Origin: a virus
Strand: one strand, 5' to 3'
IMG/VR virus record: IMGVR_UViG_3300034106_000811
Span: 1 to 24,323 of that record
Length of the DNA stretch: 24,323 bases
The notes under the pieces were generated by a model that did no database searches, had not been told where the DNA came from, and saw nothing but the letters and a program-made list of their open reading frames with translations. Numbering within the stretch: the first letter of the stretch is position 1; each line of letters starts with the position of its first letter. Both the position numbers and the translations under genes were made by a program. This document shows, in pieces, positions 4,841-14,584 of this stretch.

Positions 4841-6544
4841 TTATTTCACAACGGATACTCTTTTGGTGTTTCCGACTCTTGCTTGTGTGCGAGTTATGTC
4901 CCCTTCGGTCACAAATACTCTCTGCGAAAATCCAATTCCTGTTTCACTTGGAAGGGATGATGAAGTGATACTTGTTGGGTTAATTGATATGGGAGTGCCT
5001 CCAGTTAAACCACCTTGTGATGCACTACTTCCTGACAACAATTGTTTTGCTCTTGCGACATTCGCCAAGATTCTTGCAACACCTTGTGCATAGTATGCAG
5101 CGGTGAAGATGGGAGTTGCTGGTCCAAGAATACCCGCAACCTTTGCAGATGCTTGAGCAGATTCCGCATTCAAACCTGAAAACGCCACCGCACTATCAAT
5201 TGCAATCTCAACCAATGCGATACCCTTTTGAATGTTCTCTCTCTTCTTCTCCTCGTTAGTTAGGATGGTATTCAACGAAGTCAAGCCATCAACGGTGCTT
5301 TTTGCCATTGACAACTTTGCATCCATTATTTGTTGATCCGCTTTTCTATTCAGCTCAATTCTTTTTTGGTTGAACTCTGCCTCGTTTGCAAGTGCCTTCT
5401 CTGCATACAATTTGTCAATCTTTTGAATCTCCTCTTCATTGCCTTCAGCCATAGCAATTTGCTCGGCATACCATCGTGATAATTGAGTGATTTGAGCAAC
5501 TTGTTCTGCACCTAATCTCTTAAATTCATCTTCAGTATTGGTGATTCTTTTCTTCAGTTTCTCGTCCTCAATTTGATTGTCTATGTCTTGCAATCTCTTC
5601 CGATGTTCTTTGCGTTTGGCTTCGGCTTCCTTCTCTTTGTCTGCTACATATTTGTCACGCTCTGCATCGGTCACCTTCAATTTGTTATTCAGCTCACGAT
5701 ACAATCTTGCTTCTTCCTCCAATTCATCCTCTGTCAATTTTACACCTGTCTCTTTTCTCTTTGCAATCAATGCCAACTGGTTATTGATGATTTTTTTTCG
5801 CAGTTCAAAGATTTCAAGTTCCTTGTTGCCTTGAACGGAAAGCAAGTCAATTTGACCTTGAATGTCCTCGTTGGTTGTGGTGATTGATTTGGAGAATGCC
5901 TTGTATGAGCGTTCCGCTGCTGAAGTCACACCAATGAAATCCGTAAATTGTTGCACCAAATTACCGATAATCTTTCCAACTTGTGCAAGTCCGGGAATTA
6001 ATTTCAACACGGCTTGACTGACCTTCTCAAAGTTTGCCACCACAAAGCCCAATGCAACCGCCAAAGCACCAATTCCAGTTGCAATAATTGCACCTCTCAA
6101 TGTGCTGAATGCAGTCACAACACGACTTTTGATTGTGTTTGCCAATGCCCCAAATTGTTGTTGAACCTTTCCAAGTCCCTCAAGTCCTTCAGCCAATGCC
6201 ATCGCACCTTGCAACTTGACCATTGTCTTTTGCAAGTCCTCGCTTTCACTACCAAAGAGAGCCATTGCCCCTTGTGCTGCTTGGAATCCACGAGCAACTC
6301 CTTGAACAACCGTATTGATTTGAGCAAACTTGTCGGGGTTTACTGCTGCAACTCGGTCGTTGAAGTCATCCATTCGGTCACGAGCTTGTGCAAGTGCTTG
6401 TTCTGCCCTTATTGCTTCGGGAGAAAACTCGCCAAACTGCATCACCGCCTGTTGTGCTTGGATGGTTAGTTCCTTAATCTCCGACTTCATTGACTTGAAG
6501 TCAGGTTTTTTGACCGTTAGGTCTATCGCTGCCGTTAGTGCCAT
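4841..6544 (-). CDS. Tail tape measure protein (567 aa)
   Basis: This protein is expected to run inside the tail tube and set tail length. Residues 20-135 are helical. Residues 152-170 form a hydrophobic segment (GAIIATGIGALAVALGFVV). Residues 240-420 form a long, highly charged coiled coil rich in E, K, R and A, and residues 430-500 are alanine-rich and hydrophobic. The Gly/Ser-rich C-terminus follows. This helix, membrane-like segment and coiled-coil order is typical of tape measure proteins. At about 1.5 angstrom per residue it would correspond to a tail of roughly 85 nm. The gene lies between the large tail protein and the head protease, with a 3-nt gap upstream. An A8 run at about 5787-5794 (minus-strand reading) does not interrupt the frame. 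Confidence 0.7.
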   Translation of the reverse strand: MALTAAIDLTVKKPDFKSMKSEIKELTIQAQQAVMQFGEFSPEAIRAEQALAQARDRMDDFNDRVAAVNPDKFAQINTVVQGVARGFQAAQGAMALFGSESEDLQKTMVKLQGAMALAEGLEGLGKVQQQFGALANTIKSRVVTAFSTLRGAIIATGIGALAVALGFVVANFEKVSQAVLKLIPGLAQVGKIIGNLVQQFTDFIGVTSAAERSYKAFSKSITTTNEDIQGQIDLLSVQGNKELEIFELRKKIINNQLALIAKRKETGVKLTEDELEEEARLYRELNNKLKVTDAERDKYVADKEKEAEAKRKEHRKRLQDIDNQIEDEKLKKRITNTEDEFKRLGAEQVAQITQLSRWYAEQIAMAEGNEEEIQKIDKLYAEKALANEAEFNQKRIELNRKADQQIMDAKLSMAKSTVDGLTSLNTILTNEEKKRENIQKGIALVEIAIDSAVAFSGLNAESAQASAKVAGILGPATPIFTAAYYAQGVARILANVARAKQLLSGSSASQGGLTGGTPISINPTSITSSSLPSETGIGFSQRVFVTEGDITRTQARVGNTKRVSVVK

Positions 6545-6547
6545 ATC

Positions 6548-9388
6548 TTATCCGTTACCTATTACAAAATAATTTGTTCCATCACACACAATCCATTTCT
6601 TTTCCCAATGGTTGTTGATGACCTCATCGTCTGCTCCGTTTATTGTCGCAGCGGTTGCCGTTGCAATCGTAATTGAATGTGCTGAATTTGTTTTGAGAAA
6701 CACCCAATGCTTTCCACTCAATCCTGATGGATCGGGAAGAGTCACGGTGAACGCTCCAGCGGTCGCATCACACAGGAACAACCAATCGTCTTTGGTCACG
6801 CTTGTTGTAGTTGTTACCGTCTTAACTGCACCTCCACTCAAGAATGATGGATACATCTCGTAATTGCCAAGATAGAGTGTGTCAGGTTTAGTGACTGCAA
6901 AGTCATCACACAATATCGCAGCACTCCCATCCGTTCCCGCTTGGAAGGTTGTGTTTTTGGAAACAACCGCAAATGTATCGGTAAGATTGTTGTTCTGCAC
7001 AATGCCATCTCCCTGAATTATACCTCCTCCTCCTTGACTTACACCAACCGTCACACCTTTGATGCCGGGTTTGATTGGTATATTTCCACCGGGATAGATG
7101 TCGGATTCCGCATCGGTTTGCCCCGCAGTTCCCGCACCGATTGTCTTTTGAACTATTGATGCTGGTTCAATAAATTGCTGAAGCAAGAACTCGCACAAAT
7201 ACACCCCATCCTCAATTGGGTTGTAATCGGTGATTTGATTCAATCTCCAATACTGCCCTTCAAAGAAGTAAGCATCCGAGAATGACAAGTTCAGCCAATC
7301 CTTTGGGGTTATGCGGAAGTATGCTCTTAATATCTTGGAGTTTGATCCTGTAATCTCACTCAAGAAACGATAGTAGTAATTATTAACAAGGTTTGCATTG
7401 GTGTACTTATACCCCGCACCTACACCAATCTCTCTCGGCATTCCAAAAAGAATGTCATAAGTGGGATTGCTGATTGAGTCCAAGTGAATGGTCAATGGGA
7501 TTGAGAATTGATTTGTATAGTTCAAACCAACACCCGCATATTGTGCGTAGAACTTCCAATTGACTCCACTAACAACACCACCAAAATACAATAACCGCAA
7601 GTCACCATCTTGATAATTGGGGACATACGACAAGACAAAGTTCTTTTGGTTGTTGTACGAGTTTATCTGCGTAGGTGCAAAAGCAATTTGAATCTTTTTC
7701 TCATTCTTGATAAACTGGTTGTCAACCTTGTATGTGCGACTTCCGTATGTTGTTTGATACGATTCCTGATACAAGACATTGGCTTCGTCCTTGCCCTCTT
7801 TGTATTGTAGGACATATGGGTTGGCTTCAAGTTCTCCCATAGGAACAATCTCAACAGGTTGAGAATAGTCCAATTTAGCAGTCCAATCAACATTATCTCC
7901 AGTATAGAACTCATCTCGTGGAACGCAACGCAGATTCTTTGGATTGTCTTTGTCAGGTTCAATGTACAAATTGAACATCTTAACAAACGACATAAACATC
8001 TCGCTTTGCTTGACTTCGGAGTTTAGGAATGCAGAGAAGTCAACCGTCTCTCCAAGTCCGTATGTGTACGCTGATTGATTGCTCTCAATAAACGAATCCA
8101 CTCCGATGTCCAAAGAGAATTGTGCATTGGTCAAATTGTAATTGTTTGCATCGTCATAAACTTGTGCCAATCTCACATCCAACACATTGCCTGTAAAGAC
8201 CGCCAAAGGTGAGAAGTACAATCCCACTTGGAATGCTGGTGATCCGAAGTCAACGGTGACCGTGCTTGTTTGCTTCAATACTCCGTCAACATACAATCCA
8301 AACACCAAGTGTATGTCCTCTTGAAATACAGGTGCATACCCGGTGGATGCGTAGTTGATTGAAAGGTCAACATCAAACACATATCGTCCGCCAATGGGTG
8401 CAGTATAACGACCAGTAGTGTTGTTGTAATTGCCACCATTGTCAAAGTTCCCACCTGTGGAATCGTTTTGGAATATAAGGATTGAGTTCAGGTCAAGGGA
8501 TTGTGCCGTTGTTGTGCGAGAAGCTCGGAATCTTCTTGACTCCAATGTCGCAGCATTTGCCGTCAATGCCGATGGTGCTGGTAACACCAACCGCTTAAAC
8601 CTATCCGAGTTGAAAAAGGAATCGTTTGTGTAGGTGAATCCAGCATTGGTGAAGATTTTGTCAACAACCGTCTTTGCATAGAGCGAAGGAGTGAACTGAC
8701 TTGTATCCCACAAAGCGATGTTTGTCGGATGTCCCTTGTCTATCATCGCATACATATAACCTGTGCCATATGCGAATGCTTGTGTCGTTCCGTTCTTGTA
8801 GATTTGGTTTGACCAAGAGTCAATGATGTTGCCACTTGACAAGGTGTGGTTGTATTCGCTGAAATCTAATTGGTTGAGTTTGCGTTCTGCGATGGTCGTA
8901 AAGAAGTCCGCTGATTGTCCGTGACAAGTTACCTCATAGGTGATGTGTGTGGAGTCATCAACACGGATTTGAATCAACCGCAAGAACCCTCTCAACTGCT
9001 CAATGCCATCTACATAGATGATGCACTCGGCTTTGAGATTTGGGTTGAATGTAGGTGCAAATTGTGTGACTGAAGTTGTGGTTTGCTCTACCTCAAAAAG
9101 ATGCGAGAAGATGATGTTGTTTGTCTTTGAACCGGGCAACTCAATTGTCTTTGTCCAATCCGATGACCTTGTGTCAGGTTCACGGATGTCTGCAATTGAG
9201 CGATTGATTAAGACATTGAAATCGTTGTAGGTGTCAAGTTTGCGTTGAACCCAACTACCACCCAATGCAATCTCTTTTGAAATACGGCATTCCTCACCTT
9301 CTTCAAAAGCATCAACAACACGACTCTCAAAACTGCCCTCAATCGTTTCAAGCAACGATGTGGGGATGGCAACATAAATTTCTATCAT
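6548..9388 (-). CDS. Large tail-tip/baseplate protein (946 aa)
   Basis: The largest gene in the window starts in an ATGA overlap with the gene before it. The N-terminal half contains patterns such as FNVLINRSIADIREPDTRSS and ELPGSKTNN, followed by a long beta-rich region that includes a jelly-roll-like insertion around residues 300-430. The region around residues 780-830 is glycine-rich. The last about 110 residues (TKDDWLFLCDATAGAFTVTLPD...KHWVFLKTNS) resemble the beta-structured fibre-tip module seen at the ends of many phage tail and head fibres. It is probably a tail-tip, Tal- or hub-like protein that combines tail attachment with a fibre-like C-terminus. The specific role is inferred from position and fold style. 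Confidence 0.6.
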   Translation of the reverse strand: MIEIYVAIPTSLLETIEGSFESRVVDAFEEGEECRISKEIALGGSWVQRKLDTYNDFNVLINRSIADIREPDTRSSDWTKTIELPGSKTNNIIFSHLFEVEQTTTSVTQFAPTFNPNLKAECIIYVDGIEQLRGFLRLIQIRVDDSTHITYEVTCHGQSADFFTTIAERKLNQLDFSEYNHTLSSGNIIDSWSNQIYKNGTTQAFAYGTGYMYAMIDKGHPTNIALWDTSQFTPSLYAKTVVDKIFTNAGFTYTNDSFFNSDRFKRLVLPAPSALTANAATLESRRFRASRTTTAQSLDLNSILIFQNDSTGGNFDNGGNYNNTTGRYTAPIGGRYVFDVDLSINYASTGYAPVFQEDIHLVFGLYVDGVLKQTSTVTVDFGSPAFQVGLYFSPLAVFTGNVLDVRLAQVYDDANNYNLTNAQFSLDIGVDSFIESNQSAYTYGLGETVDFSAFLNSEVKQSEMFMSFVKMFNLYIEPDKDNPKNLRCVPRDEFYTGDNVDWTAKLDYSQPVEIVPMGELEANPYVLQYKEGKDEANVLYQESYQTTYGSRTYKVDNQFIKNEKKIQIAFAPTQINSYNNQKNFVLSYVPNYQDGDLRLLYFGGVVSGVNWKFYAQYAGVGLNYTNQFSIPLTIHLDSISNPTYDILFGMPREIGVGAGYKYTNANLVNNYYYRFLSEITGSNSKILRAYFRITPKDWLNLSFSDAYFFEGQYWRLNQITDYNPIEDGVYLCEFLLQQFIEPASIVQKTIGAGTAGQTDAESDIYPGGNIPIKPGIKGVTVGVSQGGGGIIQGDGIVQNNNLTDTFAVVSKNTTFQAGTDGSAAILCDDFAVTKPDTLYLGNYEMYPSFLSGGAVKTVTTTTSVTKDDWLFLCDATAGAFTVTLPDPSGLSGKHWVFLKTNSAHSITIATATAATINGADDEVINNHWEKKWIVCDGTNYFVIGNG

Positions 9389-10512
9389 TGGCGTTGTCTC
9401 TTGGATTCAAAGGAATAACTCATATCAACTTCAATGAAGAACGCATTGTCTTGAATATGCTTCTTGACTTCGTAGGTTGTTGCGTCTATGTTCACCGCCA
9501 CCAATGTGCCATCGTAAGCATAGACAACGGGAGATGTAAACAAGTCAAGCAACCACTCGGATTGCTCTTCCGTGATCCAGTTACTAAACATCTTGACCTT
9601 GTGAGTCATATTGGTGTCATAGGTCTTTTGCTTGAATGCCGATGTAGTGTAACCGTATGTCGCACCCAATGTGTATGGGTTGGACTTGAATTGCTTTCGC
9701 TGGATGTCGTAATTGTCACGCCTTACCCGGTTGAATCGGAATGAGTCAAACCCACCTAATGAGTTCAGGAAGAACAAATCGGTTGTGTCGTATTTGCTAC
9801 ACTCCTCAATCAAGTTGACTCGGTAGGTTTCGGATAGAACCGTTCCTCCAAGTTTTAACTGGATGTCGTAATATGTCGCTGCACCCGGTATTGTCAATTG
9901 ACTTCCTGATGGAATGCGAACCACCTTTGTTGATGGTAGATTGATTGTTTGTGTGGATGCGTCCGAGTAAGTTACAAGGGCAGTTGTTGCCGTGTTGCGG
10001 ATAGCATAGAGCCAATCCTTTTGAGTGCGGTGAATCGTCTTGCTTCGGATAGGAGTCAAGAATAATCCATTGCCATCCATTGTGTATTGACCAGCATAGT
10101 TCACCAAGTCAATTGGATTGAGTGCAGCATTCCACACGCTTCCAGTTGCCGATGTCAAGTTGGTGTATTCGGTGACGCTTCCTGTGGCAGATGCAGAGTA
10201 TTCATATCCAAACTCCACCTTGTAATCCATAATTGAATTTGTGCAACCACTTGCTGCACTATCGTTGAAGTTCCAATCATAGGTGACATAATTCTCAAGG
10301 ATGCGTCCGATGTTGAACACCCCCTTGTTTGTGCTGCCATAGTAGATTGGTGCTTTGAGCTTGGCAAGTGAAGTGGTGCTTTGCTTGACCTCTGCAATGA
10401 ACTTGAAATTGTCCTTTGTGTAGATGCCACCTGATGACTCCGTAATGACAAAGTTGGTATCGTTGTACGCTGGAGCGTATTCGTTTGGTTGTTGTGTGAT
10501 AGATAGTGCCAC
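9385..10512 (-). CDS. Putative distal tail / minor tail protein (375 aa), GTG start
   Basis: The only plausible start is the GTG at 10512: an in-frame stop lies a few codons upstream and the next methionine is far inside. The product begins ALSITQQPNEYAPAYND and is beta-rich, with RVNLIEECSKYDTTDLFFLNSLGGFDSFRF in the middle. The C-terminal portion mentions a segment that reads like a tail-interaction domain (WITEEQSEWLLDLFTSPVVYAY). It is directly coupled to the 946-residue protein (ATGA) and follows a large intergenic gap, so it starts a transcription unit or is the first gene after a control region. A distal-tail or tail-tip adaptor is the best guess. Confidence 0.55.
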   Translation of the reverse strand: MALSITQQPNEYAPAYNDTNFVITESSGGIYTKDNFKFIAEVKQSTTSLAKLKAPIYYGSTNKGVFNIGRILENYVTYDWNFNDSAASGCTNSIMDYKVEFGYEYSASATGSVTEYTNLTSATGSVWNAALNPIDLVNYAGQYTMDGNGLFLTPIRSKTIHRTQKDWLYAIRNTATTALVTYSDASTQTINLPSTKVVRIPSGSQLTIPGAATYYDIQLKLGGTVLSETYRVNLIEECSKYDTTDLFFLNSLGGFDSFRFNRVRRDNYDIQRKQFKSNPYTLGATYGYTTSAFKQKTYDTNMTHKVKMFSNWITEEQSEWLLDLFTSPVVYAYDGTLVAVNIDATTYEVKKHIQDNAFFIEVDMSYSFESKRQRQ

Positions 10513-10901
10513 GATAGAAAATAGCGGTTAGGGTTGTGCGTCCCAAATGCACACCAATATGCACATATTGCATAATACAATGGTTAATTACACCGATTTT
10601 GGGGTAGTTTAACCAATATATTGTTAACCTATAGGTTTAGTTTATGACGGATAGATTCAACTTTAAAGTTGAATTTTTGTGATAATGTCACAATTATCCA
10701 ACGATAAAGTGCGATATAATACGCAAAAGCATATAGTTTAGTCCCTTTTATGGCAAGTTATATGTGTATGGGTATAATACCGCTCGGTATAAAACAAGGG
10801 GATTGAATGAACCACCTTCAACATCTTCCCGATAGGGAATGCAAACATTTGCCACTAATCCTATATTTTGGCAATTTGTAACAAATACTGCCAATAATTT
10901 G
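10513..10901. other. Palindrome-dense non-coding region between packaging/chaperone genes and the tail block
   Basis: No supportable gene lies here. The region is AT-rich and holds several inverted repeats: CAATATG/CATATTG around 10555-10570; CAATATATTG at 10614-10623; AACCTATAGGTT at 10626-10637; a perfect 20-bp palindrome at 10655-10674 followed by T residues on the plus strand; TGTGA/TCACA at 10678-10692; GATAAT/ATTATC at 10681-10698; and ATACCG/CGGTAT at 10777-10790. No exact TAnnTTTG motif was found. The arrangement fits a control region for the tail genes, or an origin or packaging-related site; which one is open. Confidence 0.6.
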
Positions 10902-10907
10902 TTACAA
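10868..10907 (-). promoter_or_regulatory. Stem-loop at the end of the chaperone gene with a competing hairpin
   Basis: On the minus strand an 11-bp perfect stem (10907-10897 with 10886-10876) with a 10-nt loop includes the stop codon of the chaperone frame. The loop holds TTGGCA (10894-10889), which is complementary to TGCCAA just downstream (10873-10868), giving an alternative, mutually exclusive pairing. There is no T-tract after it, so it is not a classic terminator. Confidence 0.4.
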
Positions 10908-11192
10908 CATCTCGTTCAAACAAGCCACGACATATGCGTTGAATCCCTTTGTTGCTGACTGCTCCAATCGTTTCTGCCTCTCTTTTGTCTTTGCTTTGTA
11001 GAATGCAATCGTGTTCAGGAACTCAATCAACGGCATTTGCAAGATGGTGTCCCATTTTGTCCGATCCCCTTTGACAATCTTGTCAACTAATTCCAACCAC
11101 GCTAATGGACTTACGCTTCCCGTTTCAATTGGTTCATCTCCTCCTTCAAATAGGTTAGGATAGTTTCCAATAGTTTGGGATAAACTGCCGAA
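10902..11192 (-). CDS. Frameshifted C-terminal part (T) of the tail assembly chaperone
   Basis: This frame is continuously open from the T9 run at 11191-11199 to the stop at 10902-10904 but contains no ATG; the only internal start-like codon is TTG at 11096. It is in the -1 frame relative to the 182-residue gene. The product would be about 96 residues, with WLELVDKIVKGDRTKWDTI and MPLIEFLNTIAFY, features I associate with the T part of Bacteroidota phage tail chaperones. Fused to the first 156 residues of the upstream gene it gives a protein of about 252 residues. In lambda-type phages the longer GT product bridges tube and tape measure proteins during tail assembly. Independent translation from TTG is the alternative. 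Confidence 0.65.
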   Translation of the reverse strand, partial: FGSLSQTIGNYPNLFEGGDEPIETGSVSPLAWLELVDKIVKGDRTKWDTILQMPLIEFLNTIAFYKAKTKERQKRLEQSATKGFNAYVVACLNEML

Positions 11193-11659
11193 AAAAAAAC
11201 TGCATAGGAGTAAGCGGTGGTAACTGGAAGCGATAGAAACAATTCACACTTCTCTTGGTAGTGTGCTTGTGCATCGGTCACCTTCTTTGTGCGTCCCAAC
11301 AAATCAACCTCATAAGTCAGCAACGCCATCACTTTGTGGAGCGACTCAATCATATCACCGTTGAATACTTGCTGGAGTTCAATGAAGTGGTGTCCGCAAA
11401 TCTCGTTCGTTGTCTTTGCCAACTTCCAACGCCTTCCACGATGTCGGAATGAGAATCGCACCTTGTCGGTTGGTAGCGTGTTTAGGAACTCCAACTTCTT
11501 CAGTTCGGTTGTCAGCTCATCAATCGGCATTGACTCCACCTTGTCCATTGACCAATCTTTGACGATGGCAAGGGTGTTCATTGTTTTCTCAATGTGAGAC
11601 ATATCACGACAAGAGTGAATCTCTTGCAGTTGGTATATGGTTATATTATTCCATTTCAT
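11111..11659 (-). CDS. Tail assembly chaperone (G-like, 182 aa)
   Basis: The product begins MKWNNITIYQLQEI and is mostly helical, with EIHSCRDMSHIEKTMNTLA near the N-terminus and RFSFRHRGRRWKL in the middle. It sits 21 nt after the large terminase and directly before the -1-frame T-like region. In 0 frame it reads through the T9 run at codons 154-157 (GTT TTT TTT TCG) and ends at 11111. The pairing of a small helical protein, a slippery run near its 3' end and a second open -1 frame is the standard G/GT arrangement for tail tape-measure chaperones. What is odd is that two large tail genes and a 389-nt gap separate it from the tape measure gene. Family assignment is from pattern, not alignment. 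Confidence 0.62.
   Translation of the reverse strand: MKWNNITIYQLQEIHSCRDMSHIEKTMNTLAIVKDWSMDKVESMPIDELTTELKKLEFLNTLPTDKVRFSFRHRGRRWKLAKTTNEICGHHFIELQQVFNGDMIESLHKVMALLTYEVDLLGRTKKVTDAQAHYQEKCELFLSLPVTTAYSYAVFFSAVYPKLLETILTYLKEEMNQLKREA
11191..11200 (-). promoter_or_regulatory. Probable programmed -1 frameshift site (T9 slippery run)
   Basis: The minus-strand reading G-TTTTTTTTT contains a T_TTT_TTT heptamer in phase with the zero frame (GTT TTT TTT). A -1 slip enters a frame that stays open for 96 codons to 10902. Polymerase slippage on nine T residues could give the same outcome. I did not identify a clear downstream pseudoknot. Confidence 0.6.
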
Positions 11660-11680: not shown

Positions 11681-12868
11681 TTAGGCAAAGTAAAAAGTAC
11701 CCGGTCTATTGTGTGACTTGCAATCCACCGCCAATGCGAGAGCCATAACGCAGTCATCGTGTAGTCCTGTCGGTGCGGTGTATCTCACACCAGTTCGTGT
11801 GTATTCAAATTCAAAGTTCTCCATCTCGCTTCCGATTGGTTCTTCAGGAAAGAATACCGAGTTCTGCTGAACGCAGAGAACCAGTCCCTCAATGAGTTGT
11901 TGCTTGGATTGTGATGTAAACTTGAATCCCTTGACTCTTTGGCATACCCTTTGGATTTGCTCCACAATAGGATCACCCACACCTGTTGAGTCAATGAACG
12001 CTGGAGTGTTTCCAATCAACCGAATGATTCTATCTTGTGTGATGCCCCAATCCGCTTGGAATCGGTCTACATATGCACATTGATTGTTGGCATCCAATCC
12101 AACGATGACGGTATAATCCGAGTATTTTGCAAGGTCAATTCCCCAAGCGACAACCGTACCCCTTGAGACAGGTCGGTAGCATTTGCGAATGTTGTCAATT
12201 CCAAAAGGGTTGGTCTTGTCATCCGCTGGTTCTGCGAGATACAACTCATTGAATACATTTTCAGGAAGGTCACGCTTTGCTTGTTCCACCTCCTCAAGTT
12301 TAAGAATCCCGGCTTTGACTGCATCGTAAGCGGTTATCTTGAAATAACGATAGTCACTCTCTCCGCTCCTCGCCCTTTCCCCTAACTTGTAGAACCAGTT
12401 CTTTTTGCCTTTGACATTCCCAATCAACTTGCACTTGCCTTGTGTGGCAGTTAGTGTTGAACGCATAGCATACCACGACTCCTCACGCATACGACTTGCC
12501 TCATCAATGACTGCAGCATACACATCGTCTCCATACAGGTTGTCAGGTTTCTCCCCCGACTTGAACTCAATGCGTGATCCTGTTGGTAAGGTGAGCAGTA
12601 ACTTGGTCTCGTTGCTTTGGAAGAAGTCACGGTCATTCACTTGTGTCTTCATCCTTCGGAATGCAATCTCCGCTTGTTGGTATACAGGAGCAACCCACCA
12701 AACTGATTGTCCATCCTTGCACTTGAGAGCTTGTTCAAACAACCATATGATGTGCGATGCGGTCTTGCCTGTTTTGGTAGACGCTGCCGTTATCGTAAAC
12801 CTCTCCTCACAATCAAGGATGGCTTGTTGGTAACTGGTGACATATGGTCGCTTGTAGTTTATTTGCAT
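11681..12868 (-). CDS. terL: Terminase large subunit (ATPase and nuclease), packages DNA into proheads
   Basis: This 395-residue protein has both motor and nuclease domains. The Walker A-like motif is at residues 29-36 (ASTKTGKT), the Walker B at about 116-123 (VYAAVIDE, D122-E123), and a coupling motif near 148-153. The nuclease domain has acidic residues at D245 (GIDLAKYSD), D293 (FIDSTGVGD) and D371/D372 (LHDDCVMALALA), the arrangement of a RNase H-fold terminase nuclease. The length is slightly short but typical of this group. The start ATG overlaps the glycosyltransferase gene by 10 nt. The tail chaperone follows after 21 nt; no portal gene does, which would be usual. Confidence 0.9.
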   Translation of the reverse strand: MQINYKRPYVTSYQQAILDCEERFTITAASTKTGKTASHIIWLFEQALKCKDGQSVWWVAPVYQQAEIAFRRMKTQVNDRDFFQSNETKLLLTLPTGSRIEFKSGEKPDNLYGDDVYAAVIDEASRMREESWYAMRSTLTATQGKCKLIGNVKGKKNWFYKLGERARSGESDYRYFKITAYDAVKAGILKLEEVEQAKRDLPENVFNELYLAEPADDKTNPFGIDNIRKCYRPVSRGTVVAWGIDLAKYSDYTVIVGLDANNQCAYVDRFQADWGITQDRIIRLIGNTPAFIDSTGVGDPIVEQIQRVCQRVKGFKFTSQSKQQLIEGLVLCVQQNSVFFPEEPIGSEMENFEFEYTRTGVRYTAPTGLHDDCVMALALAVDCKSHNRPGTFYFA

Positions 12869-13845
12869 AGTTTATCGTAAACCGACAACCGGGTAAGGTT
12901 GTGCAGTTCCAAATTGTGATAGGTGTTGCAATAGTCAAAGTTGCTCCGTCCCATAGATTGTCTCACCGAGTGACCAGCGTGAATCAGTTTTTCAATGGAT
13001 GCTTTCCAATTGTTTTTGTTGGTGAATATCACTCCATCGTTGGATGTGTGGTACAGGTAAGGGAACACCGCAGAGCATATGATAGGGATGCTATACGCTG
13101 CCGCCTCCACAATCTTCAACTCGCTCTTGCATTGATTGAAGTGGTTGTCCTGAAGCGGTGCAAGTACAAAGTCAAAGTGCTTGTAAACCTCTCCATATTC
13201 CCACACGCTTGTGCCTTCCACAATCTTGGCTTTTGGAATCAGTTTGACGATGTTGTTCCAATGCTCACTCGGAGTGTAACCAACGATGTAGAACTCAACA
13301 TCCATCGCATTGATGTCATCAGCGATGAGCTTCAAATCCTCCTCGTGTGTAATTCCTCCCACCCATCCAATCTTCACCGTCTCATTTTTCTCCTTAACTT
13401 GCGACCATTGGTTGTGTGTTAAGTCCAAGCAGTTTGGCACAACATAGACCTTCTCGTTGATGGTGCGTATCTCTTTCGCCAACATTGGAGTTGTTGTGAT
13501 AACTGCATCCGCATAGTGGATTGCATCCTTGATGGCGGTCTTGATTCCTTTCCTGTATGCCCAATACGCTGGATTATATTTGGGGAGTACCCAATAGTCA
13601 TCAATGTCCACGACATAGGGTTTCCCGGCATCAGCGATCCGCTTGAGAACATCGTATTGGTATTTGCCCAACCATCGTGAGAAAACAACAAGGTCATATT
13701 TGGAGAAGTCAACCGTCATCCATTCCTCTTGTGATTGGCAAACATCAATTGTTGCTTGTCCGTCCAACTGCAAACGAAGATGCGGTGTATAGATGCGGTG
13801 ATAAACCACACCATTCATTCCGTCAGTTAATATCAATAAGTTCAT
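12859..13845 (-). CDS. Glycosyltransferase, GT4-like (GT-B fold)
   Basis: This 328-residue protein is likely to transfer a sugar from a nucleotide donor. The N-terminal domain has MNLLILTDGMNGVVYHRI and DLVVFSRWLGKYQYDVL. The C-terminal domain starts around KIGWVGGITHEEDLKLIADDI, and contains HFDFVLAPLQDN followed by KSELKIVEAAAYSIPIIC, the E-x7-E-type donor-binding region of GT4 enzymes. The gene lies inside the terminase region, overlapping both neighbours (23 nt with the other glycosyltransferase and 10 nt with TerL), so it is co-transcribed with packaging genes. The substrate is not visible: candidates are virion proteins, host surface glycans, or modified DNA bases. Confidence 0.8.
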   Translation of the reverse strand: MNLLILTDGMNGVVYHRIYTPHLRLQLDGQATIDVCQSQEEWMTVDFSKYDLVVFSRWLGKYQYDVLKRIADAGKPYVVDIDDYWVLPKYNPAYWAYRKGIKTAIKDAIHYADAVITTTPMLAKEIRTINEKVYVVPNCLDLTHNQWSQVKEKNETVKIGWVGGITHEEDLKLIADDINAMDVEFYIVGYTPSEHWNNIVKLIPKAKIVEGTSVWEYGEVYKHFDFVLAPLQDNHFNQCKSELKIVEAAAYSIPIICSAVFPYLYHTSNDGVIFTNKNNWKASIEKLIHAGHSVRQSMGRSNFDYCNTYHNLELHNLTRLSVYDKLCK

Positions 13846-14584
13846 TTAGTATTTTTTCAAAGGTGTAGTTCTTGTTGTAATCATAAGCGACTCCTCCCAT
13901 CGGAATCACATTCGGGCAATGATGATAGGACTCAAGCATCCGTTTGACTTTCATTTGCTCTGCAAGTGCAAAGGTTGATGACTGATTCCCAATCACCAAC
14001 TTCACCGAGTTGATGACCTGTGCCAAAGCCAATGCATCTCTCACCTTCAGGTGTTCACAATCTAACTGGTGGCGTGAGCAGAATGCGTGATATTCCTCTT
14101 CGTATCCAAAGAAAATGCACTTGTGATTCTTGAGCGATTTGTAGTTGATGTCATTGTTGCGATAGCGTGTACTGAAATTCAAAAGGATTGTGTCCTTCAG
14201 CTCTTGAATTGGTTCAGGTGCAATCACACAAGGTTGAGTCAAGTCACAAGTCAATTCGGGATAGACAAAGAAGTGGTTTCTTCTCAAGTCACCAGCACTC
14301 AAGTTGAGTTCGTGCCTTCGGAATTTGTCAAAGTCATACACGATGTCAGCGTGAGAGTTCATCTGCACACTTTGGATGTATGGTTGGAACTCAAGCAATG
14401 GCTTGATGTAAGCATAGGAGATTGGGTTCATACAATACCCACCACCGGGATGATTCGGTGTTCCATTCGGTTCACGAAATCCGATGTGAAAATCAATCTT
14501 TTCTCCGTGCAACTCGGATGCTCTCTTTGTTGCAGAAAGGGAATAGATTAAATCACCGATATGTCCTGACTGAATTACTCTCAT
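13823..14584 (-). CDS. Putative GT9-like glycosyltransferase (heptosyltransferase-related)
   Basis: The 253-residue product begins MRVIQSGHIGDLIYSLSATK, the N-terminal pattern of GT-B enzymes related to ADP-heptose transferases (GDxxxxLxxxxxL). The C-terminal segment NSVKLVIGNQSSTFALAEQM matches the conserved sugar-nucleotide-binding GN-SS-x-x-x-LAE region of the family. It is shorter than typical (about 320-350 residues), suggesting a compact form. It starts in an ATGA overlap with the 61-residue gene and runs 23 nt into the GT4 gene, forming a two-glycosyltransferase pair. The pair probably works on the same glycan, but the acceptor is unknown. Confidence 0.68.
   Translation of the reverse strand: MRVIQSGHIGDLIYSLSATKRASELHGEKIDFHIGFREPNGTPNHPGGGYCMNPISYAYIKPLLEFQPYIQSVQMNSHADIVYDFDKFRRHELNLSAGDLRRNHFFVYPELTCDLTQPCVIAPEPIQELKDTILLNFSTRYRNNDINYKSLKNHKCIFFGYEEEYHAFCSRHQLDCEHLKVRDALALAQVINSVKLVIGNQSSTFALAEQMKVKRMLESYHHCPNVIPMGGVAYDYNKNYTFEKILNELIDIN

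What the first reader, a model, noticed from the sequence alone, without database searches (positions are those of the whole stretch)
10902..11659. Probable programmed -1 frameshift joining tail chaperone G and T regions
A T9 run (11191-11199) lies in phase with a T_TTT_TTT heptamer of the 182-residue gene. The -1 frame stays open from there to 10902 (96 codons), has no ATG, and encodes a sensible C-terminal domain. The 0 frame also ends shortly after in a plausible protein. This matches the G/GT tail chaperone arrangement of siphoviruses, with about 81 nt read in both frames.
Basis: partly seen in the sequence, partly recalled or inferred. Interest (0 to 1): 0.78.

Follow-up and report, generated by a model that had tools for sequence, protein, structure and literature searches.

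The report
Nine-T slip site joins phage genes
A virus, probably of Bacteroidota bacteria, appears to make a short and a long version of one probable tail-building helper protein from overlapping genes by slipping on a run of nine T's; distant relatives keep the run, and a few have simply fused the two parts.

Summary
In detail: a 182-codon ORF (11659-11111, minus strand) carries T9 at 11199-11191, in phase with T_TTT_TTT, and the -1 frame runs open to 10902. One detail is wrong: that frame does hold ATGs (11036, 10910). Recoding is strongly supported. Of 395 split-form loci held (many overlapping), 394 have T9 or T10 at the junction; the exception lies at a contig end. They give 216 unique sequences in 16 clusters, including a Mucilaginibacter prophage and cultured Nonlabens phages. 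The -1 frame is under purifying selection (dN/dS 0.04-0.30), and 83 of 216 lack any ATG/GTG/TTG that could start it. Three distinct relatives (five loci) encode both parts in one ORF without T9: a natural control for a real fusion protein. What slips is uncertain. Nine T's kept in two codon registers exceed the seven a ribosome needs and match the 9-base RNA:DNA hybrid, so I lean to RNA-polymerase slippage (0.52) over ribosomal -1 frameshifting (0.41); both give the same protein. The tail-chaperone function is inferred from context and architecture, not shown.

The parts
11111..11659 (-). 0-frame ORF, 182 aa (G-like product)
   Evidence: alignments A1, A3, A9, A12
11191..11199 (-). T9 slip site (GTT TTT TTT TCG)
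   Evidence: T9/T10 in 394 of 395 split-form loci
10902..11198 (-). -1 frame from the slip site to its stop, 98 codons (T-like C-terminal domain)
   Evidence: dN/dS of its non-overlapping part 0.04-0.30 in 5 clusters
11111..11191 (-). 81 nt read in both frames
11681..12868 (-). terminase large subunit, next gene upstream
   Evidence: phrog_2 E 4.5e-34
9385..10512 (-). 375-aa protein, next gene downstream; 204 of the 221 loci then held carry a match to it
   Evidence: phrog_35281 unknown function
4841..6544 (-). tape-measure-like protein, 567 aa
   Evidence: phrog_339 'tail length tape measure protein', weak, E 0.0012; better match phrog_21917 (E 3.6e-06) has no known function

Best explanation
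The locus makes two products from one start. Standard reading of 11659-11111 gives a short G-like protein. A fraction of expression events slips at T9 and continues in the -1 frame, giving a G-T fusion (...AYSYAVFF-FGSLSQ...). The most likely slipping machine is RNA polymerase: with nine T's the whole RNA:DNA hybrid is a U run, the transcript realigns, one extra U is added, and ordinary translation of that RNA yields the fusion. By analogy with lambda G/GT, the short protein and the fusion probably chaperone the tape-measure protein and recruit tail-tube subunits. Shown here: two overlapping frames, both under selection; T9 or T10 wherever the frames are split (one contig-end exception); no T9 where they are fused. 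Inferred: the fusion product in this phage, polymerase as the agent, and the chaperone function.
For: Recoding in general: T9/T10 in 394 of 395 split-form loci. Two sets were found by patterns outside the site: 75 of 80 have T9, the other 5 being native fusions, and 80 of 80. A scan open to any homopolymer of 7 or more found only T9 and T10. 16 clusters at 50% identity. Over 33 G proteins of split-form loci the only invariant columns are the two Phe of the slip site. dN/dS of the T-only part 0.04-0.30. 83 of 216 have no ATG/GTG/TTG for T. Native single-ORF fusions are hit by the G profile (E 9e-16 to 2e-14) and the T profile (E 5e-26 to 1e-25), both built from split lineages only. Polymerase in particular: the run keeps nine T's in two codon registers (xTT TTT TTT Txx; and ACT/GCT TTT TTT TTG). 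The second Phe codon is TTT in all 16 clusters although TTC would keep the first product and give Leu in the second; TTC makes up 30 of 108 other Phe codons in one member per cluster. No conserved hairpin. Published passages: slippage in bacteria on runs of 9 A or T (PMC5009743); Tn with n>8 in programmed transcriptional realignment (PMC3711429); E. coli polymerase is biased towards T runs (PMC6260861); 9-base hybrid, and single-base insertions that rise exponentially with run length (PMC5574713).
Against: No RNA or protein data. Outer T's of the run can partly be explained by protein constraint: the T-frame residue after the run is F or L, and I or L in native fusions, and the residue before FF is V/I/L in 14 of 16 clusters. 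Only two clusters use the second register. The PMC6260861 passage says that E. coli polymerase already slips on T7 and T8 (reporter signal of 5% and 10%), so nine is not a strict need. L307, a native fusion, still holds T7 with an in-phase T_TTT_TTT, which a ribosome could use. The G/GT cases in the review passages that I read are described as ribosomal. The homopolymer cannot tell the two machines apart on sequence alone.
Confidence: 0.52

Rival explanations
1. Programmed -1 ribosomal frameshifting: tRNA-Phe in P and A sites slips back one base on T_TTT_TTT, as in lambda G/GT; the same fusion protein results.
For: T9/T10 in these registers always contains an in-phase T_TTT_TTT. Ribosomal -1 frameshifting is the known way for G/GT (review passages), and 7% frameshifting was measured for an HK97-like tail chaperone cluster (PMC3711429 passage). 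Protein constraint (FF plus a hydrophobic residue) explains much of the run. L307 keeps an in-phase T_TTT_TTT without T9.
Against: A T7 with TTC at the A site, or a shorter run, would serve, yet none is seen in 16 clusters. No conserved downstream structure: of four clusters tested the best is the window's, z -2.75 against column shuffles but with a consensus energy of only -1.65 kcal/mol; the others have z -1.31, -0.52 and 0.40.
Confidence: 0.41
2. T is a separate gene with its own internal start or re-initiation after G; no fusion is made.
For: P12024L_41 is annotated that way. The window has TTG 11096 and ATG 11036 in frame. 82 of 216 have a start codon, mostly TTG, between the run and the conserved motif, and 133 of 216 have one if the open stretch before the run is included.
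Against: The conserved [LI][FY] motif of T lies upstream of the G stop in 216 of 216, and 83 of 216 have no ATG/GTG/TTG between the preceding -1-frame stop and it. Native fusions exist. It does not explain T9.
Confidence: 0.04
3. Sequencing error, pseudogene or phase-variable switch: the true gene is one frame, or toggles by DNA indels.
For: T9 runs are error-prone; L029 shows T8A.
Against: Many separate assemblies, a bacterial strain genome and two cultured phages have the same frame-preserving length. The T10 clade differs by a C-to-T substitution, not an indel. L029's site lies in the last 20 bases of a contig whose other end (L027) has T9.
Confidence: 0.02

Closest known systems
Phage lambda G/GT and the siphovirus -1 frameshift tail chaperones
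   Different: The site is a uniform T9/T10 homopolymer; the gene lies next to the large terminase with two genes between it and the tape-measure-like gene; no significant sequence similarity to characterised chaperones.
Programmed transcriptional realignment, e.g. Thermus dnaX on nine A's and Shigella type III secretion genes (PMC3711429 and PMC5009743 passages)
   Same: A homopolymer of about nine at the frame transition; extra bases in the transcript would open a second frame.
   Different: T run instead of the nine A's of dnaX; phage gene; slippage itself not demonstrated here.
Acinetobacter prophage tape-measure gene said to appear to use transcriptional slippage (PMC6095929, one passage)
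   Same: Suggested polymerase slippage in a phage tail gene.
   Different: Another gene and host phylum; the passage gives no site or test.
[quoted passage not shown]
   Same: Suggested route other than classical ribosomal frameshifting for tail chaperones.
   Different: Details not read; no T9 claim known to me.
HK97 tail assembly chaperone (PDB 2OB9)
   Same: Top row of the structural second look, for residues 1-63 of the G model.
   Different: Z 3.0, 56 residues, rmsd 3.0, tied with unrelated rows; Foldseek against PDB gave nothing with E<=0.001.

Membership tests
Siphovirus G/GT tail chaperones with programmed -1 frameshift | Two overlapping ORFs, the second in the -1 frame and without a start of its own | tested here: met
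   Overlap. Starts: 83 of 216 have no ATG/GTG/TTG ahead of the conserved motif; in the window the first ATG and TTG after the run (11036, 11096) lie past that motif
Siphovirus G/GT tail chaperones with programmed -1 frameshift | Slippery sequence at the junction, conserved in relatives | tested here: met
   394 of 395 split-form loci
Siphovirus G/GT tail chaperones with programmed -1 frameshift | Position between major tail protein and tape-measure gene (recalled as the usual place) | tested here: not met
   In the window it follows the large terminase, and two genes lie between it and the tape-measure-like gene. In L223 a gene that I read as tape-measure-like lies before it
Siphovirus G/GT tail chaperones with programmed -1 frameshift | Homology or shared fold with characterised G proteins | tested here: inconclusive
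   33 G proteins: Pfam only single-member hits (best PF06479, E 3.7e-05), NCBIfam likewise, PDB best E 0.11; PHROG 32199 of unknown function in 11 of 33, PHROG 166 'tail protein' in 2 of 33 (best E 0.0005); HK97 chaperone Z 3.0; viral structures named tail assembly chaperone only at E 0.04 to 0.5
Siphovirus G/GT tail chaperones with programmed -1 frameshift | Short and long products both made, in a set ratio | not testable with these tools
   needs proteomics
Programmed transcriptional slippage | A/T homopolymer of about 9 at the frame transition, conserved in length | tested here: met
   thresholds from PMC3711429 and PMC5009743 passages
Programmed transcriptional slippage | Heterogeneous transcripts at the run | not testable with these tools
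   needs RNA sequencing

The most novel reading that the evidence does not exclude
A very broad group of tailed phages and prophages, probably of Bacteroidota, sets the ratio of its two tail-chaperone forms in transcription, not translation: RNA polymerase slips on a T run as long as its RNA:DNA hybrid, and this has been kept while the proteins diverged to 13-27% identity. One lineage has abandoned the trick and hard-wired the fusion.
Probability: 0.48. Interest if true: 0.72.

Novelty: new variant of a known kind. Interest (0 to 1): 0.52.

Why it matters
G/GT recoding is a textbook case of ribosomal frameshifting. A whole phage group that keeps T9 at the junction, together with natural fusions that lack it, makes it directly testable whether the same two-product need is met by polymerase slippage, and whether the short form is needed at all. 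It also suggests that genes now filed as separate hypothetical proteins, as in P12024L and P12024S, are one recoded unit that can be annotated as such.

Tried and rejected
Conserved RNA structure: RNAalifold upstream of the run in 5 clusters and downstream in 4 (too few usable sequences in the fifth), against column shuffles, and both sides for one representative of each of 16 clusters, gave no consistent hairpin. Rfam (gathering scores) and tRNA scans of the window: nothing. Pfam, NCBIfam and PDB profile searches with the G family: no consistent match. tblastn in 50,697 phage records with eight G or T proteins of split-form loci and one native fusion: below E 0.01 only the Nonlabens phages. 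The A4 (T) scan of the genome collection found no relative. G-profile searches of bacterial genomes found few: 1 of 301 in the family of L223's genome, the centre itself, and 4 of 395 of the class in each. A first structure model from a shallow alignment was poor (pLDDT 50); the deep one was good (88.2).

Against the pattern: a Flavobacterium phage 6H protein came up as a weak structural match (E 5.1e-4, TM 0.38). I took it to be gp10 from its length of 191 aa. The end of gp10 has T6, not T9, and its -1 frame stops at once. Relatedness is too uncertain to count it; if it is a true relative it is a form without T9. L029 (T8A) was set aside as a contig-end error. L033 ends before the run; L224 and L225 hold terminase but I found no G/T pair there.

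PDB second look: in effect only residues 1-64 were tested; the rest of G and the T domain were not searched alone.

Literature: nine searches listed no paper that I recognised as describing this site in Bacteroidota phages; the library lacks most subscription journals.

Full report
What is there. The window is a 24,323-base virus record. The genes named here lie on the minus strand. After the large terminase (12868-11681; phrog_2, E 4.5e-34) comes a 182-codon ORF, 11659-11111, whose 3' part holds nine T's at 11199-11191, the only A/T run of nine in the window. The phase is GTT TTT TTT TCG, so T_TTT_TTT is in the 0 frame. The -1 frame is open from the run to 10902 (98 codons).

Close relatives. 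Of the 158 loci of the first three viral-contig scans, 156 match the -1-frame domain; 133 keep T9 and 23 have T10, the latter through a C-to-T substitution that leaves the frame unchanged. These scans keep at most 80 loci each and repeat many contigs.

Distant relatives. A terminase profile reached four bacterial contigs, two of which carry the pair: a Bacteroidetes MAG (L222) and Mucilaginibacter pedocola TBZ30 (L223). Both have T9 in the same register and a -1-frame domain. L223 is 24% identical to the window in G and 22% in T. Further profile searches gave L228-L234 (L228 is L223's prophage again, and L233 and L234 have the same G and T), L235-L237 and L241; each has T9. The cultured Nonlabens phages P12024L and P12024S have T9 in the gene after the terminase, with the -1 part annotated as a separate hypothetical gene. 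Matches in bacterial genomes are rare: 1 of 301, 4 of 395 and 4 of 395 genomes.

Site-blind tests. A scan with patterns inside the T domain kept the best 80 of 525 relatives: 75 have T9, and 5 have no frame change at all (L244-L248 repeat contigs already seen). A scan with patterns in the N-terminal part of G kept the best 80 of 460: 80 of 80 have T9. A scan of the 403 loci then held for any homopolymer of seven or more in such an overlap found 367: T9 in codon position 2 (294), T10 (69), T9 in codon position 3 (4); no other length or base. Of the 404 loci finally held, 37 lack a hit in that scan: 27 show T9 or T10 but are truncated or fail the length filters, 5 are native fusions, and L029, L033, L224, L225 and L404 are described under Tried and rejected. 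That gives 394 of 395 split-form loci covering the site, the window's own locus included. The 367 hold 216 unique sequences, in 16 clusters at 50% identity.

Natural control. In L273, L274 and L307 (L316 and L319 give the same protein as L307) G and T are one ORF. The profile of G, built only from split lineages, matches the first half (E 9e-16 to 2e-14) and the T profile the second half (E 5e-26 to 1e-25). At the junction these read TTC TTT ATT, TTT TAT CTT and TTT TTT CTT, with no T9. By my reading of the translations they lie between a terminase and genes like those downstream of L223's pair. So the fusion is a real protein architecture, and T9 goes with the need to change frame. A caution: L307 keeps T7 with an in-phase T_TTT_TTT (CGT TTT TTT CTT), where a -1 slip would end within about five codons and give a short form; L273 and L274 do not.

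Selection and starts. Pooled dN/dS of the non-overlapping T part, read in the -1 frame, is 0.08, 0.05, 0.09, 0.04 and 0.30 in five clusters; G upstream of the run gives 0.15, 0.09, 0.12, 0.09 and 0.19. In the overlap it is 0.42-0.96 in the -1 frame and 0.50-0.71 in the 0 frame, with low synonymous change in both, as expected where two frames constrain each other but no proof by itself. In 216 of 216 the [LI][FY] motif of T lies before the G stop; in 83 of 216 there is no ATG, GTG or TTG from the preceding -1-frame stop to that motif. 82 of 216 do have a start codon after the run, mostly TTG, so separate initiation is excluded as a general explanation, not in every single genome.

Which machine slips. 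Both a +1 U insertion by polymerase and a -1 ribosomal slip give the same protein. For polymerase: nine or ten T's in all 16 clusters, in two codon registers (14 clusters with T1 at codon position 2; L236 and L237 with T1 at position 3, where the run is extended on its 3' side instead); never TTC at the second Phe codon, although TTC is 30 of 108 other Phe codons in G in one member per cluster and 781 of 1651 over all unique sequences; no conserved hairpin. Runs of nine or ten are rare elsewhere in these loci. The published facts were read as passages. For the ribosome: it is the known G/GT mechanism (passages); the heptamer is in phase; protein constraint explains part of the run; and E. coli polymerase slips already on T7-T8, so nine is not a strict need. 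My estimate is 0.52 to 0.41, with the rest for other readings.

Function. The deep-alignment model of G is confident (pLDDT 88.2, pTM 0.78), mostly helical with a strand pair. Foldseek against PDB gives nothing with E<=0.001. In the VIA second look the top row of 331 chains is the HK97 tail assembly chaperone, but at Z 3.0 over 56 residues, tied with unrelated rows. In the viral library 36 matches have E<=0.001; they are uncharacterised or unnamed phage proteins, one of them from Nonlabens phage P12024S (E 1.8e-8, TM 0.66), and weaker ones (E 0.04 to 0.5) include proteins named tail assembly chaperone. The chaperone role thus rests on architecture, neighbourhood (terminase, a weakly matched tape-measure-like gene, XkdF-like protease) and analogy. 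It works like G/GT; membership by homology is not shown, and the usual position beside the tape-measure gene is not met.

Host. Inferred, not shown: the terminase profile reached a Flammeovirgaceae MAG contig (74% identity) and two other Bacteroidota records, but also a Phycisphaerales MAG (48%) without the pair.

Literature. I saw search listings (nine searches) and passages of PMC3711429, PMC5009743, PMC10885494, PMC2853527, PMC6095929, PMC6149199, PMC5574713 and PMC6260861; none in full. In none of these did I see a T9 site in tail genes of Bacteroidota phages described. The library lacks most subscription papers, so absence from print is not claimed.

Noticed in passing
window 10513-10901: 389-nt gap between T and the 375-aa gene with a perfect 20-nt palindrome (10655-10674) and an 11-nt inverted repeat spanning the T stop (10876-10907); in L109 the same genes are only about 30 nt apart, so the spacer varies.
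   Followed up: partly
L273, L274, L307: Relatives with G and T natively fused in one ORF; L273 and L274 show no evident way to make a short form, while L307 keeps an in-phase T_TTT_TTT that might. This questions whether the short form is essential.
   Followed up: partly
L242 3528-3695, L243 3528-3695: P12024L_41 and P12024S_39 are annotated as separate genes; they look like the -1-frame half of a recoded unit.
   Followed up: yes
window 12859-14584: Two genes that look like glycosyltransferases (my reading of the translations, not searched) sit between a small-terminase-like gene and the large terminase.
   Followed up: no
window 6548-9388: 946-aa protein with a C1q-like stretch (PF00386, E 3e-4, just under the cut-off).
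   Followed up: no
L027 and L029: Both ends of one 31.9-kb contig lie in this gene and overlap, so that genome may close into a circle of about 31-32 kb.
   Followed up: no
L224: A Phycisphaerales MAG contig has a terminase 48% identical to the window's, followed by a portal-like gene (my reading of the translation) and no G/T pair that I found: the terminase may travel across phyla.
   Followed up: no
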